Shown here piece after piece: positions 1,863 through 62,311 of a stretch of 64,000 nt of DNA. Position 1 is the first letter of the stretch, and each line of letters starts with the position of its first letter. The notes under the pieces are model-generated. The model was not told where the DNA came from. It made no database searches and was given only the letters and a program-made list of their open reading frames with translations. Source of the DNA: Nitrospira sp. ND1 (GTDB lineage: Bacteria; Nitrospirota; Nitrospiria; Nitrospirales; Nitrospiraceae); the NCBI RefSeq assembly GCF_900170025.1, contig NZ_FWEX01000006.1, forward strand, positions 776,795 to 840,794. Reading direction: 5' to 3'. A program made the position numbers and the translations under genes.

Positions 1863-2465
1863 ATGATCCTTGTGGGCCTCACCGGCGGTGTCGCGACCGG
1901 CAAGAGCACGGTAGCGAAGATGTTCGAGCGATGCGGGGCGCTCGTCATCGACGCCGATGCGCTGGCCCATCAGGTGGTGGAACCGGGCAAGCCGGCCTGG
2001 CGCGCCATCATCAAGACCTTCGGCACGGCCGTTCTCAATCCCGATCGTACCCTCAATCGCCAGGCGCTGGGCGCCGTCGTCTTTCGAAACCGGTCCAAAC
2101 TGCGCCGCCTGGAACAGATCATCCATCCCCGCGTCGCGCGTGAACAGGCCAGACTGACCAGGCAAGCCGCTCGCAAGGACCCGAACGCCGTCGTCATTTA
2201 CGACGTTCCACTCCTCTACGAAGCCGGCATCGACAAGCGCGTGGACCGGGTCATTGTCGTCACCGCCGACCGGGAAACCCAAATCACCCGCCTGAACAAA
2301 CGCAACGGATTCACCCGCGCCGAAGCCATCAGGCGCATTCGCAGCCAAATGCCGATCAAACAGAAAGCCGCCGCGGCGGACTACCTCCTCGACGGCACCA
2401 CGCCCCGCCCACGCTTGCTGACGCTGGTCAAACGGCTCTACCGCGAGCTTCACACCCTGGCCTAG
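1863..2465 (+). CDS. coaE: Dephospho-CoA kinase
   Basis: It catalyses the last step of coenzyme A synthesis, ATP-dependent phosphorylation of dephospho-CoA, in the cytoplasm. The P-loop GGVATGKST lies at residues 9-17, followed by the family's IDADALAHQVVEPG segment and a lid-like RNGFTRAEAIRRIRSQMP stretch. Length (200 aa) is normal. I start at ATG 1863, which directly precedes MILVGLTGG; a start at 1845 would overlap the candidate -10 box. There is no Shine-Dalgarno sequence, in keeping with a leaderless transcript. The stop codon TAG is part of the CTAG that begins repeat B1. Confidence 0.95.
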   Translation: MILVGLTGGVATGKSTVAKMFERCGALVIDADALAHQVVEPGKPAWRAIIKTFGTAVLNPDRTLNRQALGAVVFRNRSKLRRLEQIIHPRVAREQARLTRQAARKDPNAVVIYDVPLLYEAGIDKRVDRVIVVTADRETQITRLNKRNGFTRAEAIRRIRSQMPIKQKAAAADYLLDGTTPRPRLLTLVKRLYRELHTLA

Positions 2466-2658
2466 CCCGCATTACTCATGAGCGCTTCTGCTGCAATCGC
2501 GGATTCCCGGCTGCGACAGGCCTGTCGGCGGGCGGGCTCGCCGCTCGGTCGGTCGACATCCTGTTCAAGGATGCCTCCCTTCCTTACGGCTCCACGCGCC
2601 CGTCTCGCTTCGCGACTCCGCACTTTCGCGACGAACCGTCATGAATAATGCGGGCTAG
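2462..2658. repeat. Interspersed palindromic repeat family B, copy B1
   Basis: This 197-bp element is bounded by CTAG on both sides (2462-2465, 2655-2658). Inverted arms read GCCCGCATTACTCATGA and TCATGAATAATGCGGG. The left CTAG contains the coaE stop codon. The interior differs strongly from copies B2 and B3, so only the termini define membership. It occupies almost all of the coaE-trxB gap. Confidence 0.75.
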
Positions 2659-2702
2659 ATCGCAGCTTTTCCCTCGCAGCGTCGGTGTGTTAGCATCCGC
2701 GC

Positions 2703-3617
2703 ATGCACAACGTGGTCATTATCGGGTCCGGTCCAGCCGGCCTCACCGCCGCCATCTATGCAGCCAGAGCCAATCTCTCGCCACTGCTCATAGAAGGCTG
2801 GCAGTCCGGCGGGCAACTGACGACGACTACCGAAGTCGAAAACTATCCCGGATTTTCCAAGGGCATCATGGGCCCTGAGCTCATGAAGGAGATACGTGCC
2901 CAGGCGGAGCGATTTGGCACCGAATTCCTGACCGGAGATGTCTCAGCCGTCGATCTCACACAGCGGCCTTTTCGCCTGACCATCGACGGGGAACAGACGG
3001 TGACGGCGGCGACCTTGATCCTGGCCACCGGCGCATCGGCCATTCCGCTCGGCGTACCGAATGAAACCAGGTTGATCGGACACGGCGTCTCGACCTGCGC
3101 GACTTGCGACGGCTACTTTTTTCGCGGGAAAGACCTAGTGGTCGTGGGCGGCGGCGACAGCGCGCTGGAAGAGGCCAATTTTCTGACGAAGTTCGCCCGA
3201 ACCGTCACCGTAGTCCACCGGAGGGACAAGCTGCGGGCCTCGAAAATCATGCAGGACCGCGCCATGAAGAATGAAAAAATTTCCTTCGCATGGAATTCCG
3301 TCGTCGAAGACATCCTTGGAACAGACCTGGTCACCGGGGCCCGACTCAAGAACCTCGTGACAGGGGCCTCTTCGGAACTGGCTTGCGACGGCGTCTTCGT
3401 CGCCATCGGCCACCGGCCCAATACCGATCTCTTCAAAAGCCAACTCACGATGGATGAGAAGGGCTACATCCTCACCTCGCAAGGCACGACCACCAGCGTC
3501 GCCGGCGTGTTTGCCGCAGGTGATGTCCAGGATACGAAGTACCGTCAGGCCATCACCGCTGCCGGCTCCGGCTGCATGGCCGCCATCGACGCCGAACGAT
3601 TTCTGGAGCACCAATGA
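2703..3617 (+). CDS. trxB: Thioredoxin reductase (NADPH)
   Basis: This FAD flavoenzyme passes electrons from NADPH to thioredoxin. The N-terminal FAD motif is [15 protein letters not shown] (residues 8-22). The redox-active disulfide is CATC (Cys132 and Cys135). The NADPH-binding [12 protein letters not shown] follows, and the C-terminal FAD motif [10 protein letters not shown] lies near the end. The length of 304 aa is typical of low-molecular-weight bacterial TrxB. TAGCAT with a preceding TG sits just 6 bases before the ATG and may be a -10 box, but its -35 is poor. A family A repeat follows the stop. Confidence 0.95.
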
Positions 3618-3635
3618 CCGTTGCGTCTGATCGGC

Positions 3636-3760
3636 CAGGATGCTCAAAATCGGCATCCAACAAGGCCGCAGCTGAGCGACAACCGGAGGCGTACCCGCAG
3701 TGGTACGTCGAGGATTGTCGCGAAGCGAGAACGAAGTTGGTGGCGATTTTCAGCATCCTG
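3636..3760. repeat. Interspersed hairpin repeat family A, copy A2
   Basis: This imperfect palindrome of about 125 bp has outer arms CAGGATGCTCAAAATCG and CGATTTTCAGCATCCTG (perfect inverted repeats). Inside are CAACAAGGCCGCAGC and CGAGAACGAAG, matching the other family A copies, around a GCGTACCCGCAGTGGTACGT centre. It fills the gap from 19 bases after the trxB stop to 9 bases before thiI, so it could form a terminator-like or processing structure. Confidence 0.75.
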
Positions 3761-3769
3761 TAACCACTT

Positions 3770-4948
3770 ATGCGTTGCGCCATTGTCCACTACCACGAAC
3801 TCGCCCTCAAAGGCCGCAACCGCGACTTCTTCGAGCAACGGCTCGTCCGCAATCTCAGACTGGCGCTGAAAGATCTGAAGATCCGGCGGATCGAATCGCT
3901 GCAGGGGCGCATCCGGGTGACGATTCCCGATGAGGTAACGCCCGACCTGGTGACTGAACGACTCCGCCGCACCTGCGGAGTTTCAAACTTTCTGCTGACC
4001 GAATCCGTGCCGTTGGATCTCACGGCGCCGGACCTCACGACCATCAAGCAAGTCGCCGAGCGGCAACTCTCCGAACAGACATTCAACTCGTTCCGGGTGA
4101 CGGCCAAACGCGCGGATAAACGCCTGCCTCTGACCTCCATGGACGTCGAACGCGAAGTCGGCGGCTATCTCCACGAAGCCACGGGAAAAGCCGTGAAACT
4201 GAAACAGCCCGACCTGACTCTCTACATCGAACTCCTCACCAAGGAAGCCCATGTCGCGGCAAGAAAGATCCAAGGCCCGGGCGGCATGCCGGTGGGTACC
4301 AGCGGAAAAGTGGCCTGCTTGATTTCCGGCGGCATCGACTCCCCCGTGGCGGCCTACCGGATGATGAAACGTGGCTGCAAGGCAGTGTTCGTGCATTTCT
4401 CCGGACGCCCGCTGGTAAGTCGTGATTCCGAAGAGAAGGTCCAGGAACTGGTCCAGCTGCTGACGGCCTATCAATACCATTCGCAGCTCTACATTGTGCC
4501 CTTCGGCGAGATTCAACGTGAGATCGTCGCGAACGCCCCGGCGGCGTTTCGTGTCGTCTTGTATCGACGGATCATGGTGCGCATCGCCGAAGAGCTCGCG
4601 CGGCGTCATGGCTGTTGGGCGCTGGTCACCGGCGATAGCCTCGGCCAGGTCGCATCGCAAACACCTGAGAATCTGTCGGTGGTGGAAGCAGCCGCGGAAC
4701 TCCCGCTTCTGCGCCCGTTGATTGGCATGGACAAGATCGAAATTACCGAGCAGGCGCAACAGATCGGGAGCTTCACAACGTCGATCGAGCCGGATCAAGA
4801 CTGCTGCAAACTCTTCGTGCCGTTACACCCGAGCACCAGAACCAAACCCGACGATATCCTGCGCATCGAACGGGGCCTGGAGATCAGCACGTTCGTCAAG
4901 CAGGGCGTCGAAAAGGCCGAGCTGTCGACGTTCACCTTTCCTTCGTAA
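3770..4948 (+). CDS. thiI: tRNA 4-thiouridine synthase / thiazole sulfurtransferase ThiI, without rhodanese domain
   Basis: ThiI adenylates U8 of tRNA and installs sulfur, and in many bacteria also feeds thiazole synthesis. The protein has a ferredoxin-like/THUMP N-terminal half (through about residue 165) and a PP-loop ATPase domain beginning LISGGIDSPVAAYRMMKRG (near residue 180). At 392 aa it ends with the AANH domain, like the Bacillus form, and lacks the C-terminal rhodanese domain of the enterobacterial protein. It starts just 9 bases after repeat A2. Its 3' end overlaps the convergent gene at 4932 by 17 bases. Confidence 0.93.
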   Translation: MRCAIVHYHELALKGRNRDFFEQRLVRNLRLALKDLKIRRIESLQGRIRVTIPDEVTPDLVTERLRRTCGVSNFLLTESVPLDLTAPDLTTIKQVAERQLSEQTFNSFRVTAKRADKRLPLTSMDVEREVGGYLHEATGKAVKLKQPDLTLYIELLTKEAHVAARKIQGPGGMPVGTSGKVACLISGGIDSPVAAYRMMKRGCKAVFVHFSGRPLVSRDSEEKVQELVQLLTAYQYHSQLYIVPFGEIQREIVANAPAAFRVVLYRRIMVRIAEELARRHGCWALVTGDSLGQVASQTPENLSVVEAAAELPLLRPLIGMDKIEITEQAQQIGSFTTSIEPDQDCCKLFVPLHPSTRTKPDDILRIERGLEISTFVKQGVEKAELSTFTFPS

Positions 4949-5537
4949 TCCGATCCAGGGCTCGCTCCCGAACCAGTCGAAAGTGGGTATTGAGCTCCCG
5001 CTCCATGGCGACGGCGACCAGCCAATCGGGGACAAGCGTCTTCACCTCGACCAACAAGTCGAATTCCGCCCGCGTTTGCGTTCCGTCGCCGGCCGGTTGC
5101 AGCCTCCACTCCCGATGGTACCGTGTGAAATCTCCCCCCTTGAGGTGCGTGATGAGCCCCCCGCCCGGCAACGCCTGCGATTCACAGAGCAGCCGTTGTT
5201 CGCCGGGTAACAACGCATGTGAAATATAGATGTCGGTGAGGACCCGCCCGTCCTGCTCTTCAACCTGCGCCACCCGCATCCGGGTTTCAAATAGTTCAGG
5301 CCAGTTGCGGTACTCGGACAGGATCGACTGAAGCACCGCTGGGCCGCCGGGAAACAGCAGGGTGGCCGTCGCCCGCACACCGCCGTCAGGATCAGGCTGT
5401 ACCACAAGCGCCCGCAGCAGATGGGTAGAACCAACCTCTCCAGCCGTCGCGCTCCCGACCGGCACGGTCACCAGAGCGAGCAGGCAACCGGATACCAACC
5501 AAACCCATCTCACGACGAATCGTAGCCTGTCCATCAC
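4932..5537 (-). CDS. Secreted START/SRPBCC-fold protein (polyketide cyclase-like)
   Basis: The 201-residue product begins with a hydrophobic leader (VVRWVWLVSGCLLALVTVPV, followed by an Ala-rich cleavage region). The rest fits the SRPBCC/START lipid-binding fold: an ATATLLFPGGPAVLQSILSEY helix, then NWPELFETRMRVAQVEEQDG, alternating strands, and a long C-terminal amphipathic helix. It is probably periplasmic. A Cys lies in the leader (VSGC), so a lipoprotein is possible, though the context is not a clean lipobox. The ligand is unknown. It is convergent with thiI. Confidence 0.75.
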   Translation of the reverse strand: MMDRLRFVVRWVWLVSGCLLALVTVPVGSATAGEVGSTHLLRALVVQPDPDGGVRATATLLFPGGPAVLQSILSEYRNWPELFETRMRVAQVEEQDGRVLTDIYISHALLPGEQRLLCESQALPGGGLITHLKGGDFTRYHREWRLQPAGDGTQTRAEFDLLVEVKTLVPDWLVAVAMERELNTHFRLVRERALDRITKER

Positions 5538-5806
5538 AGTATAACGGTGGGGTTCGTGAACCGGACGAAATTGCGCGCCTCAGACGGACGTCGCACCCGG
5601 AAAATTGCAGAACCGACACTCATGCGTTCCTCCACACCTTGAAACCGTCTCAATACCCGGGCGACCGGAATCGCTCGCCGGCCTTCAGCGCTGCTCAAGA
5701 AGTATACTCATTGAATGCGCCCAGTGCGAGCGCAACGACGGGACGAATACAATTATGCCTGCTGACCGGATGATCACACGGTTGAAAACGGCGGGAACCT
5801 GAACGG

Positions 5807-6568
5807 CTACGCAGAGGCAGGGCGAAACACCAGTACGACTCCTGACGGGTCTCCCCGCTCATCACGGATCATGGCCGCGCTGTCGCTGATCCGATGCTCG
5901 TGCCCGTTGCGACTCACGAGAAGAAACGGGCGCCCGCCAAGATCGGCAGACGTTCCCTTACGCAACATCTGTACGGCCGGATGCAGCACGGACCTCCGAC
6001 TCTCCGGATCTAACACCACCATTACTTCCTGAACTGCCTTCCCCAGGGCATCGGGCTGCGACCAGCCGGTCAATCCCTCAGCCGCCGGATTGAGCATGGT
6101 CACCCGTCCCTGCTGGTCGACCGTCACAACGGCATCTTCCATCGACTGAACGACCGCATCCAGCCACCGCCCGCGTTGCTCGGCAATACGCGACACACGC
6201 TGCCGGAAGAGCGCGAGTTCCAGCGCGGCGCGCAAATCGCTCCTGACAAACGGCTTAATCAAATAGGCCAACGGCAGGGTTTCCCTCGCGCGCTCCAGTG
6301 TCTCCTCATCCGAAAAGGCCGTCAGGTAGATCACCGGTGCGCCATACTGGGTTTGGATGATCCGGGCCGCGTCGATCCCATCCATCGGCCCCTTCAGCTT
6401 AATATCCATGAGAACTAAATCCGGCCGATGCTCCCCGGCCAGCCGTACGGCCTCATCCGCGGATGCCACCACACCCACGACCAGATACCCGAGTGCGCGC
6501 AGCTGACGTCTGATGTCTTCAGCCACGACCACTTCGTCATCGACGATCAGAATTTTTGCCTGCGCCAT
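5807..6568 (-). CDS. Response regulator with REC and PAS domains
   Basis: The N-terminal receiver domain has the acidic pair at Asp10/Asp11 and the phospho-acceptor at Asp55 (LVLMD), followed by LTAFSDEE and a conserved Lys in YLIKPF. After a short helix (near residue 130) a PAS domain follows (WLDAVVQSMEDAVVTVDQQG, then NPAAEGLTGWS). There is no output kinase, DNA-binding or GGDEF domain, so it probably acts through protein contacts. I start at ATG 6568, immediately before MAQAKILIVDDE; the frame continues open upstream with non-homologous sequence. No partner kinase is adjacent. Confidence 0.85.
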   Translation of the reverse strand: MAQAKILIVDDEVVVAEDIRRQLRALGYLVVGVVASADEAVRLAGEHRPDLVLMDIKLKGPMDGIDAARIIQTQYGAPVIYLTAFSDEETLERARETLPLAYLIKPFVRSDLRAALELALFRQRVSRIAEQRGRWLDAVVQSMEDAVVTVDQQGRVTMLNPAAEGLTGWSQPDALGKAVQEVMVVLDPESRRSVLHPAVQMLRKGTSADLGGRPFLLVSRNGHEHRISDSAAMIRDERGDPSGVVLVFRPASA

Positions 6569-6887
6569 AGTACAACCCGATGAAACGAGATCGGAAAATT
6601 GGTATCGCCGCTCACACCACACACCGCTCGAGCGCACTACACACGTATCCGCACAGCGCTCGATACCCCACCGCAACGCAACTAACATGCCACCTGGCCT
6701 TCCCTGTACTGGCATCATGTTATGCCGGGCGGGATTCTTGCCCCCATACACCAACGGTGGTTTTTGAACAGTCCTTGGACAGAATCGGCAGAAAACAAGG
6801 CTTGCGTGGACCAGGCGCTCCGGGAAAGATTCGCTGCGGAAATGACCGCTGTGATACGATGCCGCTCTTTAACGGAGTTGATCCAAC

Positions 6888-8293: not shown

Positions 8294-8386
8294 GCCCCAC
8301 CCACTGTTTCTCCCCGGCCGATAGTGGTAGGCTACGGTCTCATGTCCTCCCTCATGTGAGGACCCACCTCAGCCGGTTGCGAGGCC

Positions 8387-11712: not shown

Positions 11713-11720
11713 GCAGAATG

Positions 11721-11870: not shown

Positions 11871-11880
11871 GTCGCAGGTA

Positions 11881-11907
11881 AAGCCGGAGGACTTTTTCAG
11901 CCTCCTG
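11881..11907. repeat. Half copy of repeat family A adjoining B2
   Basis: GGAGGACTTTTTCAGCCTCCTG matches the right arm of family A (compare 52200-52217 and 55812-55830). It ends directly against the CTAG that opens repeat B2, a composite junction also seen at 15691-15724 and 62308-62330. Confidence 0.55.
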
Positions 11908-12088
11908 CTAGCCCGGATTATTCATGAATGCCGTCGCGAGGCGTTCGAGACGGAAGCCCGCCGAGGCTGCTCGCACGTAAGGCCGACGCAGGCGTACTGG
12001 CAGTCCGTCGAGGAGGCCGAACGAGAACAGCCTCGCCGGGCGACAGGATCGGACGCCGGAGCAGGGATTCATGAATAGTCCGGGCTAG
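11908..12088. repeat. Interspersed palindromic repeat family B, copy B2
   Basis: This 181-bp element is bounded by CTAG (11908-11911 and 12085-12088). Its arms are GCCCGGATTATTCATGAAT and ATTCATGAATAGTCCGGG. It is almost colinear with copy B3, with no length change. The right CTAG supplies the stop codon of the M48 peptidase gene on the minus strand. On the plus strand it is open throughout and encodes a peptide shared with B3. Confidence 0.8.
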
Positions 12089-12951
12089 ACGCGTTTGGTC
12101 ATGCGGAGGAACCGTTCCTGCAACACCAAGCCGTTGGATACAAGACGCTTGGTGCGAATGGTTTTCTGCACGGCCTCGATCCGCACGGAAAAGTTGGGAT
12201 GGGTCTTAAACAGCGCACGGTCATCGCCCTTGAGATCGCGCAACCGCGTCAGTAGGCCCACATAGGCCTCCGCATCGTATCCGACCCGCGCGGCGAACAA
12301 TTCACCGACCGTATCGGCCTCTGTTTCTTTCTCCTGATCCAGACCTTCATCGAGCAGCTTCTTGACGGCGCCGTCGATCACGCCCTTGAACGCAGCCGGA
12401 TTACTCGTCGCATAGGAGAGGCCGGCTTCGGTCACTCCGGCCAGGCGCTTGCTGCGTTGAATCACATCGAGGATATGCTTTTCGCTCACATGCGCAATTT
12501 CATGCCCCAGGACGGCGGCGAGCTCCGCCTCATTCTTGATTTGCCTGAGCAGGCCCCGGGTCACAAAAATATATCCGGCGGGCGCGGCAAACGCGTTGAT
12601 CGACTCGTGATCCAGAATGGCGACATGGTATGGAATATCGGGCCGGTCGGACGTGTTGGCCACCGCCCTCCCTACCAGGTTTACATAGCGAACTAATTCG
12701 GGCTGATCCACAACACCGCCGTACCGTGCCACGACTTGCAGGGCTATCGCCTGCCCGATCGACGATTCTTCCTCGTAGCCGATGGGAAACAGACTGCCGA
12801 CGACATTGCCTGCGCCATGGATCGCACCGGCCAATCGGGGATTGCCGGACTGTCGGGCGACATCCTCGGCAGCCCGCTGCACCTCTGCACAACCAGCCAC
12901 AGTCATCGAGAGCGCCATCAGGCTCGTCATCCAGATCCTGTTATTTCGCAT
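12085..12951 (-). CDS. M48-family metallopeptidase, lipoprotein
   Basis: The product has a lipoprotein signal peptide with lipobox VAGC at about residues 18-21. An M48 (HtpX/Oma1-type) zinc protease domain follows, with the active site in LGHEIAHVSEKHI and the third zinc ligand plausibly in EKETEADTVGE. The C-terminal THPNFSVRIEAVQ is the conserved THPxxxxRI of soluble M48 peptidases such as BepA. It probably acts in the periplasm, in outer-membrane quality control. The start overlaps the upstream SH3 gene by 11 bases. Its stop codon is inside repeat B2. Confidence 0.9.
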   Translation of the reverse strand: MRNNRIWMTSLMALSMTVAGCAEVQRAAEDVARQSGNPRLAGAIHGAGNVVGSLFPIGYEEESSIGQAIALQVVARYGGVVDQPELVRYVNLVGRAVANTSDRPDIPYHVAILDHESINAFAAPAGYIFVTRGLLRQIKNEAELAAVLGHEIAHVSEKHILDVIQRSKRLAGVTEAGLSYATSNPAAFKGVIDGAVKKLLDEGLDQEKETEADTVGELFAARVGYDAEAYVGLLTRLRDLKGDDRALFKTHPNFSVRIEAVQKTIRTKRLVSNGLVLQERFLRMTKRV

Positions 12952-15720: not shown

Positions 15721-15901
15721 CTGGCCCGGATGATTCCTGAGGGCCGTCGCGAGGCGTTCGAGACCGAAGCCCGCCGGGGCTTCTCGCAAGTGAGGCCGAC
15801 GCAGGCGTACTTGGAGTCCGTCGAGGAGGCCGAACGAGAAAAGCCCCGCCGGGCGAGAGGATCGGACGGCGGAGCAGGCAGTCAGGAATCTTCCGGGCTA
15901 G
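15721..15901. repeat. Interspersed palindromic repeat family B, copy B3
   Basis: This 181-bp element is the same length as B2 and very similar throughout. Its left boundary is CTGG (15721-15724) and its right boundary CTAG (15898-15901). Arms are GCCCGGATGATTCCTGA and TCAGGAATCTTCCGGG. The right CTAG supplies the stop codon of the protease/SUMF1 gene on the minus strand. Confidence 0.8.
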
Positions 15902-17511
15902 GGGACGTCGGTCGCGCAACGAAATCCTAACGTCGGCCCCCAGTACGTCATCTCGTCCCAGCCCCGGTAGCTGGCGCGCAACTCGAGAGGCCGCTCCATC
16001 CAGCTGCCGCCTCGCAAGACACGAAACGTCCCGCGCAACGGCCCCTGCGGATCCCGGGCCGGCGACGTGCGGTAAAAATCCTCCGCATACCAGTCCTTCA
16101 CCCATTCCGACACCATCCCGATCATGCCGAACACGCCGTAGGGTGACGCGGAGACTGAGGGCAGGCCCAACGGATCGACGCCATTGGCAGAATTCCCGTC
16201 CGTCAGCTTGACCCTGCTTTTCTGAATCACCTCGTCGCTGTTACCCCAGGGATATCGGCGGCCGTCGATTCCCCGCGCCGCCTTCTCCCATTCCGCCTCC
16301 GTCGGCAATCGTTTACCGACCCACTGACAGTAGGCCCGGGCTTGAGACCAGGTGACATTGGTCACCGGGAATTGGGCTCGCTGAGTATCATCGAAGGCAT
16401 CGCGCACTTTCGGAATCAGACATGCGCCTCCCTCCACACAGGCCCGGTACTGCCCGTTCGTCACTCCATGCCGGTCGATCCAATAGGCACTCACATACAA
16501 CCGATGGATCGGACGGGCATCGGGCAAACCATCCTCCATGCCCATGAGGAACTCGCCGGCGGGAATCAACACCATCTCCCCGGGAGGTGTCAGTCCTTGA
16601 TCGACGAATCGCTTGAGCTCTTCCTGCTGGCTTGCCAGCAGTTGAGCATTCACGCGATCAATAGATTCGTCTCCGGCCAGGGGAACCGGCTCATGGACAG
16701 GAGCGGGCGGCACTGGGACACGGGTGACGGACGGCTGGGCACTGTGCCGGCCATCGGAAGACGGAGGCATCGGTGCGGGGTGAATGACCGTGGCCGGCCC
16801 TTCGGACATGCGCACGGTTTCGATCCGCACGGACGTCCGCGTGAGTTCCGTGACCAGATCACCGTTGCCCTTTCCCTTGGGCGACCCCCTTCTCCCCCTG
16901 CCGATGGCGGAGAAATCGAAATCCGGGATGTTGGCTAACAGGGGCGTGGCATAACTGATCGGCACGGCAAAGGCCATCCCTTCCGGCACGATCCCGGACG
17001 GATGGGTAAACTTCGTAGTGAGGATTCCCACGACTTCGCCCTTCCGGTTAAACACCGGGCCTCCGCTGTTGCCGGGATTCACCGCGGCATCGACCTGAAA
17101 GACCCGTTGCACGCCCTTGGTCCTGACGGCAGCCACATGGCCACGAGTGATGGTGATTTCGCGTAACCCGAACTGAAACCCGACGGCAATGACCTCCTGG
17201 TCCAGCTTCACAGCGCCGGCATACCCGAGCAACGCCTCGGAGAGCCCCACCGTCTCCACCTTGAGCAAGGCGAGATCGTGTTCCGCATCCACGCTCACCA
17301 GCACGGCGGGCGCCCGAAATTCCCCGGACGTCACGATCGTGATCCGCTTCGCATTGGCAACGACATGGTGGGCCGTGAGGACATACCCATCACGATGAAC
17401 AATGACGCCGCTACCGGCCGGCTTTTCTACCGGCAATGGCGGACGCTCGTTCGCCCGTCCACTTTCGACAGGCGCGAACAACAGGACAAGCAGGACCAGG
17501 TAGATCTTCAT
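15898..17511 (-). CDS. Serine protease fused to a SUMF1/formylglycine-generating-enzyme-like domain
   Basis: The 537-residue exported protein has a signal peptide (KIYLVLLVLLFAPVESGRA). A trypsin/HtrA-like domain follows, with the triad visible as His48 or His49 in TAHHVV, Asp79 in EHDLALLKV and Ser149 in GNSGGP. There is no PDZ domain. After a Pro-rich linker (about 200-300), a SUMF1-type domain begins near residue 313 (GEMVLIPAGEFLMGMEDG) and continues through WSQARAYCQWVGKRLPTEAE, RRYPWGN and RVLRGGSW to GFRCA. In bacteria SUMF1-type domains often lack formylglycine activity, so its role here is unknown. It overlaps the haem-protein gene by 4 bases, and its stop codon is inside repeat B3. 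Confidence 0.9.
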   Translation of the reverse strand: MKIYLVLLVLLFAPVESGRANERPPLPVEKPAGSGVIVHRDGYVLTAHHVVANAKRITIVTSGEFRAPAVLVSVDAEHDLALLKVETVGLSEALLGYAGAVKLDQEVIAVGFQFGLREITITRGHVAAVRTKGVQRVFQVDAAVNPGNSGGPVFNRKGEVVGILTTKFTHPSGIVPEGMAFAVPISYATPLLANIPDFDFSAIGRGRRGSPKGKGNGDLVTELTRTSVRIETVRMSEGPATVIHPAPMPPSSDGRHSAQPSVTRVPVPPAPVHEPVPLAGDESIDRVNAQLLASQQEELKRFVDQGLTPPGEMVLIPAGEFLMGMEDGLPDARPIHRLYVSAYWIDRHGVTNGQYRACVEGGACLIPKVRDAFDDTQRAQFPVTNVTWSQARAYCQWVGKRLPTEAEWEKAARGIDGRRYPWGNSDEVIQKSRVKLTDGNSANGVDPLGLPSVSASPYGVFGMIGMVSEWVKDWYAEDFYRTSPARDPQGPLRGTFRVLRGGSWMERPLELRASYRGWDEMTYWGPTLGFRCATDVP

Positions 17512-51984: not shown

Positions 51985-52217
51985 CAGGGCGCTCAAAAAG
52001 GCCGACCAGCAAGGCCGCAGCGAGGTCCACGGCGCGAAGCATAATGAGCGCCACGCCTGTGGACGCCGGCGGGATGGTGAGCCGGCCGTGTCCTGGGCGA
52101 GGCGTCACGTTCTTACCCGCCCACCCCACGCCTGCCGGGACAGGCTCTTTTCCCATGGGGTACGTTGGGCTACTGGGCGACGCGAGAACGCCGCCGGCGG
52201 GCTTTTTCAGCGTCCTG
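51985..52217. repeat. Interspersed hairpin repeat family A, long copy A3, abutting the lspA stop
   Basis: Outer arms are CAGGGCGCTCAAAAAGGCC and CTTTTTCAGCGTCCTG. The core shows CCAGCAAGGCCGCAGCGAGG and GCGAGAACGCCGCCGGCGGG, shared with A4. At 233 bp it is about 110 bp longer than the other copies, with an extra GC-rich centre. It ends at 52217, immediately before the lspA stop codon at 52218-52220. Confidence 0.7.
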
Positions 52218-55567: not shown

Positions 55568-55708
55568 AGGATGATCTATCTGAGGAACAAAAGAGCCATG
55601 AAGTGCGCGTAAAGAGAGGACTATACCGAAACGAGGCGAGAGGAACCAGTGGTTTGTTGGCAGCCGGAACCATTTAGCAAGGTGACTGGTAGGATCTGGC
55701 TGTCCTAC

Positions 55709-55830
55709 AAGCTGTTCAGAAAGGTCGTCCGGCAAGGCCGCAGCGAGGGAGCATGTGAGGCGTACCCTTGCGGTACGTTGAACATGCGAGCGACGCGAGA
55801 ACGCCGCCGGCGGCCTTTCTCAACAGCCTG
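55709..55830. repeat. Interspersed hairpin repeat family A, copy A4, abutting the nadA stop
   Basis: Left arm AAGCTGTTCAGAAAGGTCGT and right arm GGCCTTTCTCAACAGCCTG enclose GGCAAGGCCGCAGCGAGGG and GCGAGAACGCCGCCGGCGG. It ends at 55830, and the next bases CTAG contain the nadA stop codon (55831-55833). The centre holds GCGTACCCTTGCGGTACGT, itself a small hairpin also found in A2. Confidence 0.75.
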
Positions 55831-56919
55831 CTAGCTGAGCGCCATCATGCGGTCAAGCGCCACCTTCGCCCACTGCTTTTCGTCATCCGGGACCACAATC
55901 CGGTTCACGACATGGCCGTCGGCAAGGTTTTCCAGCGCCCAGCAGAGATGCGGGGCATCGATCCGGTACATGGTCGCGCATTGGCAGACGGTCGAGGAGA
56001 GGAAAAACACCTTCTTGTCGGTCTGCTCGTGCTTCAGGCGATTGACCAGGTTCAGTTCGGTACCAACCGCCCAGGTGGTGCCCGCCGGCGCCGCCGTAAT
56101 GGTGCGGATGATGTACTCCGTCGAACCGACCAGGTCGGCCTTGTTCACCACATCCTCATGGCATTCGGGATGGACGATGACCTTCACGTCCGGGTACTGC
56201 TTGCGGAAATAGTCCACGTGCGACGGCTGAAACATCTGGTGCACGCTGCAATGGCCCTTCCACAGAATCAGCTTCGCCCGCTTGATCGCCTCCACCGAAT
56301 TGCCGCCTCGCGGCATGAAGGGATCCCAGACAATCATCTGCTCGCGGGGAATGCCCATCTTGTTGGCCGTATTGCGCCCCAGGTGTTCGTCGGGGAAAAA
56401 CAGGATCTTCTCGCGCCGCGCCCAGCTCCATTCGATGACCTTCCGCGCGTTCGACGAGGTGCAGGTCAGCCCGCCATGTTCGCCACAGAACGCCTTCAAG
56501 ATCGCGGCTGAATTCACATAGACCGCCGGCATGACCATCTCTTCCACCGGCACCACCCGCCCGAGCGCATCCCAGCACTGTTCGACCTGCTCAATCGCCG
56601 CCATATCAGCCATGGAGCAGCCCGCCGCCATGTCGGGAAGAATGACCGTCTGGTTGGAGCGGGTTTCCGCCATAAAGTGCACGCCGCAAAACACGACATA
56701 GGGCCGATCGGACCGCTGCTCGGCCACCTGCGCGAGAATCAGGGAGTCGCCGCGAAAATCGGCATGCTGAATCACTTCATCGCGTTGATAATTATGGCCG
56801 AGGATCATCACCCGGTCGCCGAGCGTCCGTTTGGCCGCACGGGTCCGTTCGAAGAGTTCTTCGGCAGACAAGGATTGATAGTCGGTAATGGGACGGGGAA
56901 GCGTGGCGACCGTTTTCAC
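55831..56919 (-). CDS. nadA: Quinolinate synthase
   Basis: It condenses iminoaspartate with dihydroxyacetone phosphate to quinolinate in NAD synthesis, using a [4Fe-4S] cluster. The likely cluster cysteines are in FCGVHFMAET, TCTSSNARKV and the C-terminal region of STVCQCATMYR. VILGHNYQRDEV, HPECHEDVV and FFPDEHLGRNTANKMG are family hallmarks. At 362 aa it belongs to the longer NadA type. A promoter is visible upstream. Its stop codon adjoins repeat A4. Confidence 0.94.
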   Translation of the reverse strand: MKTVATLPRPITDYQSLSAEELFERTRAAKRTLGDRVMILGHNYQRDEVIQHADFRGDSLILAQVAEQRSDRPYVVFCGVHFMAETRSNQTVILPDMAAGCSMADMAAIEQVEQCWDALGRVVPVEEMVMPAVYVNSAAILKAFCGEHGGLTCTSSNARKVIEWSWARREKILFFPDEHLGRNTANKMGIPREQMIVWDPFMPRGGNSVEAIKRAKLILWKGHCSVHQMFQPSHVDYFRKQYPDVKVIVHPECHEDVVNKADLVGSTEYIIRTITAAPAGTTWAVGTELNLVNRLKHEQTDKKVFFLSSTVCQCATMYRIDAPHLCWALENLADGHVVNRIVVPDDEKQWAKVALDRMMALS

Positions 56920-56945
56920 CTGCAGCCTTTCGGTTGATTGAAAAA

Positions 56946-56975
56946 ACTATACCACGAGGGAACTTACACTGTCTG
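56946..56975 (-). promoter_or_regulatory. nadA promoter
   Basis: On the minus strand, CAGACA (56975-56970), an 18-base spacer and TATAGT (56951-56946) with TGG immediately upstream (extended -10). It lies 27 bases before the nadA ATG. Confidence 0.5.
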
Positions 56976-57029
56976 ATTCTACGACACCCCTTCCCGCACA
57001 ATCAATGAAACCACCGCTGAGAAGAGGGC

Positions 57030-57371
57030 CTAGGAAGAGGTTAGGGAGATGAGTCGAAGGGGCCGCGAAAGCAGGCTCTCTTCGTTAGCGAAGTTTCCAA
57101 TATCCTGGCCGGCGGCGGCCATGAGCAAGGGCCACCAGTCATTCACGACCCGGTAGACCAACTGGAAGGGAAACCGATGAAAGAGATAACGGCGAGTTCC
57201 GTGTACAAACAGCGGCCAGCGTTCGGGAGCAAGAGAGACGGCTTCGATGCCGCGGTCAAGTTCGGCCAGAAACGAATCCGCAGCAGACTGGCTTCTGGCC
57301 TTATACCATTGCCGAGCAGCCTGGGCTTCCTCAACGGCGGCGGGATGAAAAACATAAGATAATCCCGGCAT
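57030..57371 (-). pseudogene. RelE/ParE-family toxin with a C-terminal frameshift
   Basis: The N-terminal 80 residues are a normal RelE/ParE toxin (YVFHPAAVEEAQAARQWYKA, then SFLAELDRGIEAVSLAPERW and RRYLFHRFPFQLVYRVVND). After that the frame reads WWPLLMAAAGQDIGNFANEE, which is not ParE-like. In the neighbouring frame the same DNA encodes LVALAHGRRRPGYWKLR and a stop at 57085, the expected ParE C-terminus. One base is therefore missing near 57139-57140, so the product's last strand is lost. It overlaps its antitoxin gene by one base. Confidence 0.8.
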
Positions 57372-57595
57372 CAGAGGCCGAGTATCTTTCGGCGGGCATC
57401 GCTCCAGGAAACGAGATGGGGGTGAGACGAATTGAGCTCCTTGAGGCGGCGGGCGATTTCCTGCTCCCAGTCCGTTTCGGCATCTGCATCAACAGTCGTA
57501 TCCAGGCTGTCCAGCAAGGAGCCCGCCATCGCCGCACGGACCTCGGGCGGAAGCTTCAGGGCCGCCTCTAACAATTTGGACGCATCAGAGCCCAT
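57371..57595 (-). CDS. Antitoxin of the ParE-type pair (addiction module component family)
   Basis: The 74-residue product reads SKLLEAALKLPPEVRAAMAG, then SLLDSLDTTVDADAETDWEQ and EIARRLKELNSS, ending WSDARRKILGL. This matches the small addiction-module antitoxins (TIGR02574-like) that pair with ParE-type toxins. It overlaps the toxin gene by one base and comes first, as is usual. With the toxin damaged it may be an orphan. Confidence 0.85.
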   Translation of the reverse strand: MGSDASKLLEAALKLPPEVRAAMAGSLLDSLDTTVDADAETDWEQEIARRLKELNSSHPHLVSWSDARRKILGL

Positions 57596-58200
57596 ACGCG
57601 AATTCTAGCAGAAGCAGTGGAGCAGGAAAGGCTGTCTTGCACACCTGTGATTGGGCCCGAGCCACGAACATCATCAGCTCATATGGCACAAGGCCTCCGT
57701 GGGGGAAAGGAGACAGCGTCTGGCAGGCGATTGGTCCCCCAGAGACACCTGCCTGAGCACCAGACTAAGCCTTGCCGGCTCGAAGCCTGTCAACTCGCCG
57801 GCGACCGGCTCACACAGGACAGACTTCGCCGTTGCCTCCGAAGCGCAACGGCCGCCTGCTGCGGCAAGTCTGGTATCCGCTCATGCAGTCTAAAGGCAGA
57901 CAATCCCCTGCCAGGCACCAATGCGAAGAAACCGCATCCACTCGAAAATTTCCAGTGGAGGGACGAGAGCGGTGGCCAACGATTCCCAATACTCGCGAAA
58001 CACACGGTCGCGGAGTCCTCTCGTTGTACGTGCGTACGTTGTGAACTACCAGCGCCAACCTCCATTACGTGAACAAGAAAGACAGCGGGAAGTTCACTAG
58101 ACCCAGCTCGCGCTGAATAGACCAGGAGAGCACTGAGGAAGTAGAATGACATGTTCCCGTAAGACTGGATTTACATTTTTAGTTTGGCAAGTTGCAGACG
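57596..58200. other. Gene-free stretch of about 600 bases
   Basis: No frame here has a recognisable protein or a convincing ribosome-binding site, and I see no RNA gene or repeat. Composition becomes more AT-rich toward the right, leading into the RelA/SpoT-domain gene. It may be the remnant of a decayed gene. Confidence 0.4.
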
Positions 58201-59484
58201 ATGGGAAATGCCGAGGACAAATACGAGAAGATGCTGCCTTTCATGGATGCAGCCTCAAAAGAACTTGGGAAGCTCCTAACAGAAGCTCTAAGCAACCTTG
58301 GTGATCCTCACCTTGTGCGTGCCCGAGTGGATTCACGCAGAATAAAAACGCTCGCTTCCCTTAAAAGAAAGGCTGGGGAACACTCCTGGACTGTCGAGAA
58401 CGCTCTTGATAAAGCAATAGACTTAGTTGGGTTCCGAGTAGTCTGCAACAACCTTCAAGATGTTGAGCGAGCCGCCAGTGTACTGGCCAGCTCGCTTAAG
58501 ACGAAAGGCATTCCCGTCACCATCCAAGATTTGATCAAGAATCCTACCAGGACTGGGTACCGCGCAAGTCACCTTCGAATACGGTTTTCTGTAGAGATTG
58601 CTGGCGAAAAGAGAACCATAGGGTGCGAAGTGCAAATTAGGTCCCTCCTGCAGCACGCCTGGGCTGAGTTGTCTCGCGCTGATGTTTACACTAAGGAGAC
58701 CGAGCTAGCACCTTCGTTAGTGCGATCAATGGAGCGGCTTGCACAGCAAATCCATGTCGCCGACCAGATTGCCAACGACATCCGGGAAGAAATCGCACGT
58801 CCTCATGAAGGGAAGCCACCAAAAGATGGATCTGATCTCACAGGATCGTCTATCGCATTCTTGTATCAACAAGCATTCGGTGCGCAGCCTCCGGATTACG
58901 TCATCCAGTCAGCACTTAACGAATTCAAAGGCACACCCGTTCGGGCTGATGGCTTGGCCTTAATTCTTAAGGATAGCGACTTCCTTAGGAAGCTAGGTTC
59001 ACACTATGAAGGTTCCTTCGGCTGGGAGCCCACGACGGAGCAAATTTTCCGGTGGGCCGTTTACGCCGCAGCTCACGGCATAAATTCAGCATTGCAACTC
59101 GTAGCGGAGGAAGGATTGGCGGACCGAGAGGAGATCGACTCCGCTTTTATTGGCGAAGTCGAGTCAGAGCTTCCCCAGACGTGGCAGGATCTCGTCGAGA
59201 GAATCGAGCACACAGAGAAAGACGATGACCCGCAGCATGATATCCTCCGATGGGCAGAAACATATGGCGCTCTCGGTGAATGCGCCATATGCGCTACGAA
59301 GATCGTGCACACGGACTCGCTCACGGAAGTGCTCGTAGAGCATTACGGTCTGGAAGGCGACGAAGCCGACGAGGCTGCCGAGGATATCGAACATGCGCTA
59401 TTTGATAGCGGTGTCGAGACTGGAGACCTCCAAGACAGAAGTCTCTGTTTTTACCACGGAGATGTGATGAGACGAGACGACTAG
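58201..59484 (+). CDS. RelA/SpoT-domain (alarmone synthetase-like) protein with a C-terminal Cys/His-rich segment
   Basis: The N-terminal half is a RelA/SpoT nucleotidyltransferase domain. ATP-site basic residues lie in DSRRIKTLASLKRKAG, Asp74 in DLVGFRVVC, Tyr120 and His123 in TGYRASHLRI, and the catalytic Glu144 in CEVQIRSLLQHAWAEL. All key synthetase positions appear intact. There is no HD hydrolase or TGS/ACT domain. The C-terminal half (about 190-427) is unknown and includes CAIC and CFYHGD, a possible zinc site. Composition is AT-richer than the housekeeping genes. It could be a small alarmone synthetase, or a ToxSAS- or CapRel-type toxin. ATG 58201 is preferred over TTG 58192. Confidence 0.82.
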   Translation: MGNAEDKYEKMLPFMDAASKELGKLLTEALSNLGDPHLVRARVDSRRIKTLASLKRKAGEHSWTVENALDKAIDLVGFRVVCNNLQDVERAASVLASSLKTKGIPVTIQDLIKNPTRTGYRASHLRIRFSVEIAGEKRTIGCEVQIRSLLQHAWAELSRADVYTKETELAPSLVRSMERLAQQIHVADQIANDIREEIARPHEGKPPKDGSDLTGSSIAFLYQQAFGAQPPDYVIQSALNEFKGTPVRADGLALILKDSDFLRKLGSHYEGSFGWEPTTEQIFRWAVYAAAHGINSALQLVAEEGLADREEIDSAFIGEVESELPQTWQDLVERIEHTEKDDDPQHDILRWAETYGALGECAICATKIVHTDSLTEVLVEHYGLEGDEADEAAEDIEHALFDSGVETGDLQDRSLCFYHGDVMRRDD

Positions 59485-59618
59485 GCACCTTCCTCACGCG
59501 GATGAGGAAAGTCTCTAGAAACATCATGCGACGAGTGGCAGGCATCGAAAAGGGAATCCTAGACTGGCAGCGGCTGACCGTCACCGCTGCCAGAAAATAG
59601 AAGAGATTTTGGTCTGCA

Positions 59619-60158
59619 TTGAAAATTACGATTTCAAAACTCGCTGCGGCACAATCGCAACTCTTGGAGGCAATCAACCTTTTCTTCGAAGAGCGAGACC
59701 CCGTATCGATCCATACTCTAGCTTGCGCAGCACTACAAATACTGCACGATCACTTCGATGACATTGGTCAAGTTTGGGATCATAACTTAATATTTCACTA
59801 CGACTCTATTTACGTCCAAGATGAGCACAGAAAAGAATATGCAGACAAAGTTCGGGAAGCCAGAAACTTCTTCAAGCACGCTGAACATGACTTGCGAACT
59901 AAGAAAAATAACATTGAGTTTAATACGGAGACAAACGCCTTTTATATCCTGGAAGCCACTCGGTGCCTGAGAATTATCCATGGAGACAGCCGTGTATTTC
60001 ATCCGGAATTTAGCATCTTCGTATGCTGGTACGGGTTGAAATATCCGGACCATCTCACTGATGAAGGGAAAAAGAGCTACGTCAAACTACAAGGCACGAG
60101 TCCAGATGATTACAAGGCATTCCGTGACGCAATCACATTCCTGAAAGCGAATCCGTAG
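59619..60158 (+). CDS. HEPN-like small protein of unknown function
   Basis: The 179-residue product is helical: AAAQSQLLEAINLFFEERDP and VSIHTLACAALQILHDHFDD, then REARNFFKHAEHD. RNFFKH fits the R-x4-H motif of HEPN ribonucleases; the fold assignment is an inference. The only usable start is TTG at 59619, since the frame is closed just upstream and no ATG precedes the conserved part. It is AT-rich like the upstream RelA/SpoT gene and 134 bases downstream of it on the same strand. Confidence 0.65.
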   Translation: MKITISKLAAAQSQLLEAINLFFEERDPVSIHTLACAALQILHDHFDDIGQVWDHNLIFHYDSIYVQDEHRKEYADKVREARNFFKHAEHDLRTKKNNIEFNTETNAFYILEATRCLRIIHGDSRVFHPEFSIFVCWYGLKYPDHLTDEGKKSYVKLQGTSPDDYKAFRDAITFLKANP

Positions 60159-60343
60159 ATAGAGAGAGATGAAGTCGGGAATGATTTCGTGGCGCGCGGC
60201 GGTCAGGCCTCTTCCTCACCTCCCCCCTTCCCCTTGCACACCTCTCCCTCGCCGTCTCTACACTGATGGATACGCCTCCAACTTTGCAGTAAACTTGGCC
60301 ACAGCAGACTCTGAGCGCGCCTTCCACATGAAAAGGGAACGCC

Positions 60344-60652
60344 ATGGTGGAACTCAGACCAACCTGCGAGCACTGCAACAAACCTCTGCCGCCCGACTCA
60401 CGTGAAGCACGCATCTGCTCCTATGAATGTACCTTCTGTGCGGCCTGCGTGGAGTCGGTCTTAGGCAATGTCTACCCGAACTGTGGTGGCGGTTTCGTGC
60501 CCAGACCCATCAGGCCCTCGAAGAACTGGAAAGGCGACAACTTTCTTGGCCAGGACCCGGCGAGCACAACAACAAAAAACAGGCCGGTCGATCTCGCGGC
60601 TCATGAGTCGTTCTCCGCCGCTATTAAAACCATACCGCCTGAAAAACGATAG
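60344..60652 (+). CDS. DUF1272 zinc-ribbon protein
   Basis: The 102-residue product begins MVELRPTCEHCNKPLPPDSR, then EARICSYECTFCAACVE and VYPNCGGGFVPRPIRP, the standard DUF1272 pattern of paired Cys zinc sites. The C-terminal tail is longer than usual. Function is unknown. The preceding 185 bases hold no feature I can support. Confidence 0.87.
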   Translation: MVELRPTCEHCNKPLPPDSREARICSYECTFCAACVESVLGNVYPNCGGGFVPRPIRPSKNWKGDNFLGQDPASTTTKNRPVDLAAHESFSAAIKTIPPEKR

Positions 60653-60769
60653 TACGTGGATGCGGATGGTCAGAAGTTGCCAGGAACCATTTCGCGGCGT
60701 CGCGGGCTTTAGTCCAAGACTTGTTGTAAAATATCTCGGTGACGTGTCGCCCATCTCTGGGAGGCTCGC

Positions 60770-61099
60770 ATGACACGGAGCAACCAGTCTCAGCGCGACC
60801 ACAATCTTCGAGAACGCGCACTCAAGTTATTTCCTTGGATCTGCGCGCACTGCGGGCGTGAATTTGACGGCAAGAAGCTGAGCCAGCTCACCGTCCACCA
60901 CAAGGACCACAACCACGACAATAATCCACCCGACGGGAGCAACTGGGAGCTACTCTGTCTCTACTGTCACGACAATGAGCACCAGCGGTATCAAGCCACT
61001 GATTCGTCGGATGCAACGTCGCCACGTCGGCAAGAAGAGCAACCTTCAACCTTCACGCCCTTCGCCCATCTCTCAGACTTACTCAAACATAAAACCTAG
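60770..61099 (+). CDS. yajD: HNH nuclease of the YajD type
   Basis: The product has 109 residues. It contains CAHCGREFDGKKLSQLTVHH, then KDHNHDNNPPDGSNWELLCL and YCHDNEHQR. The ββα-metal HNH motif with structural CxxC pairs is the same as in the YajD family. It is cytoplasmic. Whether it acts in repair, defence or housekeeping is unknown. Confidence 0.85.
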   Translation: MTRSNQSQRDHNLRERALKLFPWICAHCGREFDGKKLSQLTVHHKDHNHDNNPPDGSNWELLCLYCHDNEHQRYQATDSSDATSPRRQEEQPSTFTPFAHLSDLLKHKT

Positions 61100-61274
61100 C
61101 GAAATAAACACTCGCTCAGGTCCAGTTCGCGGCGGGGACGTTGTTAGGGTGCGCCCGACGATGAACGCGTCTTTGCTCACACCACACGACAAGCCGATCA
61201 AACCACCTCCTACCTTCACGATAATTCGATTGCACGCCCCCTCATAATAAAGTAACATATTCGTTACCATTGTC

Positions 61275-61610
61275 ATGACCGAGATACGCATACTCGAATA
61301 TTTTGACATCAAGTCGCGTTCGCCTTTTGCCGCATGGTTCGAAGGCCTCCCTGCTGTCGCTTCAGCAAAAGTTGCCGCAGCGCTGTATCAGTTAGCTGCT
61401 GGGAACTGGTCGAATGTGAAGGGAGTTGGAGCTGGAGTGTTTGAACGGAAGATCGATGCCGGGCCGGGCTATCGCGTCTATTTCGGGAAGGACGGTGACC
61501 GGCTTGTGATCTTGCTAGGTGGCAGCACAAAGCAGCGTCAGCAACAGGCGATCGAGACGGCTAGAGACCGGTGGGCAGACTACCGTCGCCGCAAGGGCAC
61601 CAGGACGTAA
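61275..61610 (+). CDS. Type II toxin, RelE/HigB (HI1419-like) family
   Basis: The 111-residue product reads ILEYFDIKSRSPFAAWFEGL, then VKGVGAGVFERKIDAGPGYR and VYFGKDGDRLVILLGGSTKQ. This is the phage-derived 'killer protein' RelE-fold subfamily, which cleaves mRNA. It appears complete. It is followed 18 bases later by an HTH antitoxin, the toxin-first order typical of this subfamily. Confidence 0.88.
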   Translation: MTEIRILEYFDIKSRSPFAAWFEGLPAVASAKVAAALYQLAAGNWSNVKGVGAGVFERKIDAGPGYRVYFGKDGDRLVILLGGSTKQRQQQAIETARDRWADYRRRKGTRT

Positions 61611-61628
61611 CAGTGAGCGGGGGAACCT

Positions 61629-61949
61629 ATGGCACTCACACGACAGTTCAAAGACACGGTAACGGCGCGCGCGGAGCGTGATCCGCGTTTTCGTGAGGCG
61701 CTGTTTGCGGAGGCGCTGAATGCTTATTTCTCCGGCGATACGACTGTGGGCAAGGCCATCCTCCGCGATCTGGTTAATGCCACCATCGGGTTTGAGGAGC
61801 TCGCCCTGACGCTCAAGAAGCCGAGCAAAAGCTTGCATCGGATGTTGGGTCCAGGGGGGAATCCAAGCACCGACAACTTCTTCAGTATCCTGAACGCGCT
61901 CCAGAAGAAGGCTCGCGTCACATTGCGCGTGACGGCCAAAGCCAGCTAA
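61629..61949 (+). CDS. HTH antitoxin of the RelE/HigB-type pair (HI1420-like)
   Basis: The 106-residue product includes REALFAEALNAYFSGDTTVG, KAILRDLVNATIGFEELALT and KSLHRMLGPGGNPSTDNFFS, an XRE-like helix-turn-helix of the HI1420 antitoxin family. It neutralises the toxin encoded just upstream and probably represses the pair. A GGGGGAA ribosome-binding stretch precedes the ATG. Confidence 0.88.
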   Translation: MALTRQFKDTVTARAERDPRFREALFAEALNAYFSGDTTVGKAILRDLVNATIGFEELALTLKKPSKSLHRMLGPGGNPSTDNFFSILNALQKKARVTLRVTAKAS

Positions 61950-61999
61950 GAACGCACGGGCGTAGTACACTGGTCCGCACCATTCATTTCGGAGTTCAC

Positions 62000-62281
62000 A
62001 TGCCCCACGTGTTGATTATTCACGAAGTCGAAGCCTACCCCGCCTGGAAAGCTGTGTTCGATGGCGCGGCGGATCTGCGGAAACGTGCCGGAGAAATCAG
62101 CTACCAGCTCCTGCGCTACGACCAAGATGCGAATAGCATTGTCCACTTCTCGGCCTGGTCTAGCTTGGAGAACGCCCGGCGCTTCTTCGAGTCCCTGGAA
62201 TTGGTCGAATTGAGGCGAGCTGCCGGAGTGAAAGCGCCGGATTTTCTGTATCTGGAAGAGATCGAGCGAGGGGTGCTCTAG
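62000..62281 (+). CDS. Dimeric alpha/beta-barrel (ABM-like) protein
   Basis: The 93-residue product reads MPHVLIIHEVEAYPAWKAVF, then SYQLLRYDQDANSIVHFSAW and NARRFFESLELVELRRAAGV. It fits the ferredoxin-like dimeric barrel of antibiotic-biosynthesis monooxygenase and DUF1330-type proteins. No catalytic role can be assigned. Its TAG stop codon lies in the CTAG that begins repeat B4. Confidence 0.72.
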   Translation: MPHVLIIHEVEAYPAWKAVFDGAADLRKRAGEISYQLLRYDQDANSIVHFSAWSSLENARRFFESLELVELRRAAGVKAPDFLYLEEIERGVL

Positions 62282-62311
62282 GCCGAACCATTCATGAAAA
62301 ATCCGGGCTAG
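62278..62311. repeat. Minimal copy B4 of family B, followed by a family A half arm
   Basis: CTAG at 62278-62281 and again at 62308-62311 enclose GCCGAACCATTCATGA and AATCCGGG, the family B termini with the interior deleted. The left CTAG contains the stop codon of the preceding gene. Beyond it CAGGCTGCTCACAATGCCCG (62312-62331) resembles the left arm of family A, giving the same A-next-to-B junction as at 11908 and 15721. Confidence 0.65.

What the first reader, a model, noticed from the sequence alone, without database searches (positions are those of the whole stretch)
2462..62311. CTAG-bounded palindromic repeats that supply the stop codons of four genes
Seen: copies at 2462-2658, 11908-12088, 15721-15901 and 62278-62311 share arms like GCCCGGATTATTCATGA and CTAG (once CTGG) at the ends. 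In all four the TAG of one terminal CTAG is the exact stop codon of a neighbouring gene (coaE, the M48 peptidase, the protease/SUMF1 gene and the ABM-like gene). Known: IS5-family elements favour 4-bp YTAR (including CTAG) targets. Inference: this is a MITE-like element inserting into CTAG, which in coding DNA is tolerated mainly at stop codons; it may also end or stabilise the mRNA.
Basis: partly seen in the sequence, partly recalled or inferred. Interest (0 to 1): 0.75.

Follow-up and report, generated by a model that had tools for sequence, protein, structure and literature searches.

The report
Tiny jumping element landing on stop codons
The repeats are real: a small gene-less transposon, apparently made from an IS1380-type insertion sequence, that lands on the four-letter site YTAR; such a site can be a gene's stop codon, and since landing duplicates the site the gene keeps its stop and its protein is unchanged.

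Summary
Three full-length copies (2462-2658, 11908-12088, 15721-15901) and one 34-bp copy (62278-62311) are bounded by CTAG (once CTGG); a terminal TAG is the stop codon of coaE, an M48 peptidase, a trypsin/FGE-sulfatase protein and an ABM-like gene. It is a MITE family with arms in 27 of 29 genus genomes. The target duplication is YTAR (CTAG, TTAA, CTAA, TTAG), not CTAG alone. The likely source is IS1380, not IS5: IS1380 copies in two relatives carry the same ends with YTAR, as do IS1380 elements elsewhere. Of 63 aligned element-free loci, 59 already have a stop at that triplet, so the element duplicates the stop and does not supply it. Stops hold 29 of 54 own-genome copies and 22 of 62 in a relative: above intergenic YTAR as a whole, not clearly above YTAR within 100 bp of gene 3' ends (p=0.051). 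Target choice plus selection against coding insertions explains most of the pattern. A 3'-end RNA role is open: a very stable hairpin, and a weak orientation bias at stops seen after the fact. No IS1380 transposase was found in the own genome.

The parts
2462..2658 (+). MITE family B, full length 197 bp
   Evidence: (inverted repeat I2)
2462..2465 (+). left target copy CTAG; TAG 2463-2465 is the coaE stop codon
2655..2658 (+). right target copy CTAG
1845..2465 (+). coaE (dephospho-CoA kinase), ends in the left target copy
11908..12088 (+). MITE family A, full length 181 bp; folds as one hairpin, -113.2 kcal/mol
12085..12088 (-). right target copy CTAG; TAG on the - strand is the stop codon of the M48 peptidase
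12085..12951 (-). M48 peptidase gene, ends in the right target copy
15721..15901 (+). MITE family A, diverged copy, ends CTGG/CTAG
   Evidence: (D1, 87%)
15898..15901 (-). right target copy CTAG; TAG on the - strand is the stop codon of the trypsin/FGE-sulfatase gene
15898..17511 (-). trypsin-like plus FGE-sulfatase (SUMF1) gene, ends in the right target copy
62278..62311 (+). 34-bp copy (two fused arms), probably an internally deleted element; relatives have longer elements at the same stop
62278..62281 (+). left target copy CTAG; TAG is the stop codon of the ABM-like gene
62000..62281 (+). ABM-like small gene, ends in the left target copy
   Evidence: below curated cut-off

Best explanation
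The repeats are copies of a non-autonomous miniature element (MITE) with 16-bp inverted ends like CCCGSAYTATTCATGA, moved in trans by an IS1380-family transposase. The transposase inserts into YTAR and duplicates it. YTAR holds TAG or TAA on either strand, so a site at a gene's last codon already is the stop. Duplicating it leaves an intact stop at the gene's edge and the protein unchanged. Insertions inside genes are removed by selection, so survivors gather at stop codons and between genes. SHOWN: the family, its inverted ends, YTAR duplications, empty sites with the stop already present, IS1380 elements with matching ends, depletion in genes. INFERRED: mobilisation in trans by IS1380, and selection as the filter.
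For: Identical YTAR at both ends in 33 of 53 own-genome pairs (CTAG 23, TTAA 7, CTAA 2, TTAG 1) and 47 of 62 in G028. coaE site: eight relatives have a 48-bp gap with a single CTAG or TTAG where the own genome has 241 bp. Four sites together: 63 element-free loci with an aligned gene end, 59 with a stop at the same triplet, 44 with YTAR. IS1380 in 7 of 29 genus genomes, 5 over the family's cut-off; four loci have paired ends 12-16 of 16 identical to the MITE arms, one end 16 of 16 to family B. In 29 of 51 IS1380 loci fetched by protein from named genomes, ends were sought without asking for YTAR: 15 of 29 show CC-starting inverted ends plus an identical YTAR flank; these are 12 genomes, 11 outside Nitrospira. 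Gene depletion odds ratio 0.15. About 11 insertions are shared between the own genome and G028, so most counted ones are not.
Against: No IS1380 transposase found in the own genome (0 matches; one partial PF13701 match under cut-off). 20 of 53 pairs lack identical ends. 14 of 116 elements fall inside called genes. In one search the script favoured any identical 4-bp flank, and 4 more of the 29 came out with an identical flank that is not YTAR. The fourth genus IS1380 copy (L117) has CTAA/TTAG. Stop enrichment against all intergenic YTAR (odds ratio 3.5) is larger than plain availability predicts, though it shrinks to 1.8 (p=0.051) near gene 3' ends. Genes were called by a home-made model (coding fraction 0.80), so missed genes inflate the intergenic count.
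Confidence: 0.88

Rival explanations
1. The element is kept at gene ends because it works there: its long hairpin, which includes the stop codon, shapes the mRNA 3' end (stability, end trimming, blocking read-through or antisense transcription).
For: Family A folds end to end (-113.2 kcal/mol, z -9.8), family B z -4.5 on the strand tested. One strand (A+/B-) folds better in 97 of 99 elements (A and B share ancestry, so these are not independent), and at stops the gene's sense strand is the A-/B+ one 29:11 (p=0.006). Family B has 92 double-changed cells, 85 of them Watson-Crick, against 46.7 expected. Elements favour gene 3' zones over other intergenic sites (odds ratio 4.0). A terminator-like match spans the element's right end at coaE.
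Against: The orientation test was not planned, and G028 alone gives 13:9 (p=0.52). Family A read forwards has 29 double-changed cells against 25.4 expected, 11 of them the target word itself. The element has no T-run of its own after the stem. Most counted insertions are not shared between own genome and G028.
Confidence: 0.2
2. The transposase or its partners actively aim at stop codons or gene ends.
For: 51 of 102 elements outside genes lie on stops against 104 of 471 background YTAR sites outside genes, p=6e-8. The same M48 and ABM stops carry elements of different family or orientation in different genomes.
Against: Against YTAR within 100 bp of gene 3' ends the excess is small (pooled odds ratio 1.8, p=0.051; own 1.7, p=0.24; G028 1.9, p=0.11; an earlier gene model gave p=0.40). 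Full IS1380 elements (16 of other groups, 4 of Nitrospira) sit on ends of ORFs of 90 or more codons in 6 of 20 cases against 38 of 149 background YTAR sites.
Confidence: 0.08
3. One reading: an IS5-derived element of CTAG that supplies stop codons.
For: 4-bp YTAR targets are stated for IS5 in the finding (and recalled by me); no call tested it.
Against: The six DDE_Tnp_1 loci of the own genome have no paired matching ends; IS1380 loci of relatives do. Stops exist without the element.
Confidence: 0.03

Closest known systems
IS1380-family insertion sequences (NCBIfam NF033539; Pfam PF13701)
   Same: Inverted ends like CCCGxATTATTCAYGA and YTAR duplication, in the same genus and in other groups
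   Different: The genus IS1380 elements are 1700-1713 bp with a transposase (457 aa in L108 and L117); the repeats are 34-247 bp and have none
Bacterial MITEs such as RUP, Correia/NEMIS and MITEAba12 (PMC2229807 and PMC6382973, passages seen)
   Same: Short, no transposase, inverted ends, target duplication, many copies, ends shared with a full IS
   Different: RUP uses TA and MITEAba12 9-bp targets; in the passages seen none is described as sharing its target duplication with host stop codons (one MITEAba12 copy makes a premature stop)
piggyBac transposons (TTAA target recalled; IS1380 used as outgroup in PMC10813416, passages seen)
   Same: One of the four target forms here is TTAA; IS1380 is taken as the prokaryotic outgroup
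   Different: Target here is the wider YTAR; the ends were not compared

Membership tests
Bacterial MITE | Short, multi-copy, without transposase gene | tested here: met
   53 pairs of 34-247 bp in the own genome, 62 pairs of 34-222 bp in G028
Bacterial MITE | Terminal inverted repeats | tested here: met
Bacterial MITE | Target-site duplication, shown by empty sites | tested here: met
   33 of 53 and 47 of 62 identical YTAR ends; coaE empty sites
Bacterial MITE | Mobilised in trans by a known transposase | not testable with these tools
   needs a transposition assay
IS1380-derived (ends and target) | Ends match an IS1380 element | tested here: met
   12-16 of 16 bases for nine ends of five genus loci; three other genus IS1380 copies (L110-L112) lack the ends
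IS1380-derived (ends and target) | Same target duplication as IS1380 | tested here: met
   CTAG/CTAG in L108 and L109, TTAG/TTAG in L115, not in L117 (CTAA/TTAG); 15 of 29 wider loci, one of them (L236) the same copy as L115
IS1380-derived (ends and target) | Transposase resident in the same genome | tested here: not met
   0 matches in the own genome
IS5-derived | IS5-type transposase flanked by the same ends | tested here: not met
   six PF01609 loci, no paired ends at up to 6 mismatches; IS5 types outside PF01609 were not sought
REP/REPIN with RAYT (Y1) transposase | Y1 transposase flanked by the repeat | tested here: not met
   one Y1 locus in the own genome, neither repeat family within the 3324 bp fetched

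The most novel reading that the evidence does not exclude
YTAR is a built-in safe harbour: a target word that is a stop codon on either strand lets a transposon enter gene ends without harm, and in this genus the element has become a recurrent 3'-end module, re-inserted at the same stops in different lineages and kept preferentially in the orientation that gives the host mRNA the weaker hairpin.
Probability: 0.2. Interest if true: 0.65.

Novelty: new member of a known kind. Interest (0 to 1): 0.42.

Why it matters
It gives a concrete case of how the wording of a transposon's target site decides where insertions are harmless: a site that reads as stop on both strands. It names an abundant repeat family of (by inference) the nitrifier genus Nitrospira and links it to IS1380. 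Many such insertions would be invisible to a search for broken genes, because the gene keeps its length. Whether hairpins hung directly on stop codons change mRNA 3' ends is directly testable.

Tried and rejected
IS5 origin and REP/RAYT: no matching ends. Rfam: no match in the window at gathering scores. PF13701 in the own genome: one partial match under cut-off. 'Supplies the stop': rejected by empty sites. Active aiming at stop codons: not supported once local availability is allowed for.

An early expectation (9.5 of 51 on stops against 28 seen) was set aside as inflated by missed genes; the improved gene model still shows an excess over all intergenic YTAR.

Literature: nine searches listed no paper whose title or abstract start, as shown, concerns a Nitrospira or IS1380 MITE at stop codons. 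That covers only the held open-access library. I saw passages of PMC3281130, PMC10813416, PMC6382973, PMC3055811 (64, nothing relevant) and PMC2229807, and only listings of the rest.

Rows dropped: 10 single arms (two of them, the 15721 copy, put back by hand to make 54); 5 single arms in G028; a further own copy at G000:C6:1878515 was not counted; the place lists were cut by the tool, so 54 and 62 are not complete sets. In one search, 17 of 116 elements were left out of the folding count (7 short or unassigned, the rest shared sites). In one search, 29 of 51 loci were tested; four of the 15 positives are from one gammaproteobacterial genome and one (L236) is the same copy as L115. In one search, 20 elements were chosen by hand, among them L235 and L236 (the copies L117 and L115), one without YTAR flanks (L242) and some cut by contig ends. 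In one search element presence was judged by an arm with up to 4 of 16 mismatches within 26 bp of the gene end, 16 of 100 loci had no aligned end, and 4 of the 21 loci with an element are the own genome.
Full report
What is there. Three are full-length repeats, 197, 181 and 181 bp, with arms like CTAGCCCGGATTATTCATGA facing inward from both ends. The fourth is 34 bp, two arms run together. A TAG in one terminal CTAG is the stop codon of a neighbouring gene in all four: coaE, an M48 peptidase, a trypsin-like/FGE-sulfatase protein and a small ABM-like protein whose Pfam match is below cut-off. The arm, with up to 3 mismatches, occurs 7 times in the window and never in 100 shuffles, and 105 times in the 4.45-Mb genome against none for the reversed pattern.

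The family. In stretches fetched around copies I paired 53 elements and added the diverged window copy by hand (54). These are not all: the place list was cut, and at least one further copy exists. Lengths cluster at 181 bp (family A) and 196-197 bp (family B), with rarer forms from 34 to 247 bp. A and B are homologous: A read backwards aligns with B forwards at score 161, against at most 145.5 for 200 shuffled cores, while A forwards gives 123. Of 53 pairs, 33 carry the same YTAR word at both ends: CTAG 23, TTAA 7, CTAA 2, TTAG 1; 20 do not. In relative G028, 47 of 62 do. So the duplication is YTAR. Arms occur in 27 of 29 genomes searched in the genus.

The source. The own genome's six DDE_Tnp_1 loci have no matching paired ends. 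IS1380-family transposases were found in 7 of 29 genus genomes, 5 of them over the family's cut-off, none in the own genome. Four IS1380 loci, three in G002 and one in G014, are bounded by ends 12-16 of 16 bases identical to the MITE arms; the 4-bp flanks agree in three (CTAG, CTAG, TTAG) and differ in the fourth (CTAA/TTAG). Partial copies in G028 and G019 keep one such end; the IS1380 copies of G010, G020 and G023 lack these ends. A protein search of named genomes brought 51 loci. In 29 of them I looked for any inverted ends, favouring an identical 4-bp flank of any word: 19 have an identical flank, and in 15 of these it is YTAR next to ends starting CC. One of the 15 (L236) is the same copy as L115 and four come from one gammaproteobacterial genome, so they stand for 12 genomes, 11 outside Nitrospira. 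As the script did not ask for YTAR, this is largely independent support.

Empty sites. At coaE, eight relatives (G028, G001, G025, G020, G026, G023, G017, G022) have 48 bp between coaE and the next gene with a single CTAG or TTAG, where the own genome has 241 bp, exactly 193 (197-4) more; G019 has the element too. Over the four sites, 84 of 100 loci had an aligned gene end: 21 with an element (4 of them the own genome) and 63 without. Of the 63, 59 have a stop at the same triplet and 44 a YTAR word; four at the ABM site do not. The stop does not depend on the element. At the ABM stop, G012, G020, G001, G014, G005, G003 and G028 show the start of a longer element, and in G012, G020, G001 and G014 a full-length match lies directly there, so the 34-bp window copy is best read as an internal deletion. 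The M48 stop carries family A in the own genome, G025, G020 and G013 and a B-like end in G014; the ABM stop carries the element in the opposite orientation in G025. The same stop seems to have been hit more than once.

How special are stops? After taking each element out and calling genes, elements fall on stops in 29 of 54 (own) and 22 of 62 (G028); 10 and 13 lie elsewhere within 100 bp of a gene 3' end, 10 and 18 in other intergenic DNA, 5 and 9 in called genes. Background YTAR in the same stretches: 104 stop, 84 near 3' ends, 283 other intergenic, 426 in genes. Depletion in genes is strong (odds ratio 0.15, p=2e-14). Stops against all intergenic: odds ratio 3.5, p=6e-8. Stops against sites within 100 bp of 3' ends: 1.8, p=0.051 (own p=0.24, G028 p=0.11; an earlier gene model gave p=0.40). 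About 11 insertions are shared between the two genomes and were not removed from these pooled counts. Full IS1380 elements (16 of other groups, 4 of Nitrospira) end on ORFs of 90 or more codons in 6 of 20 cases, background 38 of 149. The simplest reading is target availability plus selection, with insertions gathering at gene 3' ends, where YTAR is often the stop itself.

Possible RNA role. Family A folds into one hairpin that includes the stop codon (-113.2 kcal/mol, z -9.8); family B is weaker on the strand tested (z -4.5). In 97 of 99 elements the A+/B- strand folds better. At stops the gene's sense strand is A-/B+, the weaker one, 29:11 (p=0.006; shared sites removed, single-stop elements only), while elements not at stops between tandem genes show 17:18. 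But G028 alone gives 13:9, own 23:6, and the test was not planned. Paired double changes exceed independence in family B (92 cells, 85 Watson-Crick, against 46.7) but hardly in family A forwards (29 against 25.4). A terminator-like match spans the right end of the coaE element and the DNA after it (2649-2664); only window 1800-3000 was scanned. I treat all this as a lead.

Frames. In the two copies tested (11908 and 2462), read from either end, one frame stops at once at the target's TAG, a second at a TGA in the arm (sixth codon), and the third runs on for 24 to 60 codons.

Verdict. An ordinary kind of element, a MITE, with an instructive target: a word that is a stop codon on both strands.

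Noticed in passing
window 3636-3760, 51985-52217, 55708-55830; ends also at 167-203 and 11886-11907: A second repeat family with ends like CAGGATGCTCAAAAAGGCCG facing inward (repeat finder D2/D3). Of 24 ends in the own-genome stretches 5 are flanked by CTAG, three of these being the edge of a family A/B element. It abuts the end of ORF 55831-56919(-) and the M48 and ABM stops in relatives.
   Followed up: partly
G000:C6:1878515-1878729 (L371): A further, degraded family B copy (CTAG at the left, CTCG at the right) that was not among the counted elements.
   Followed up: partly
L325 (G028:C21:41120-41153) and G000:C6:1968327-1968360: More 34-bp two-arm palindromes (two in each genome counted), suggesting that this smallest form arose or moved more than once.
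   Followed up: no
window, all CTAG sites: CTAG is under-represented (50 against 85.7 expected).
   Followed up: no
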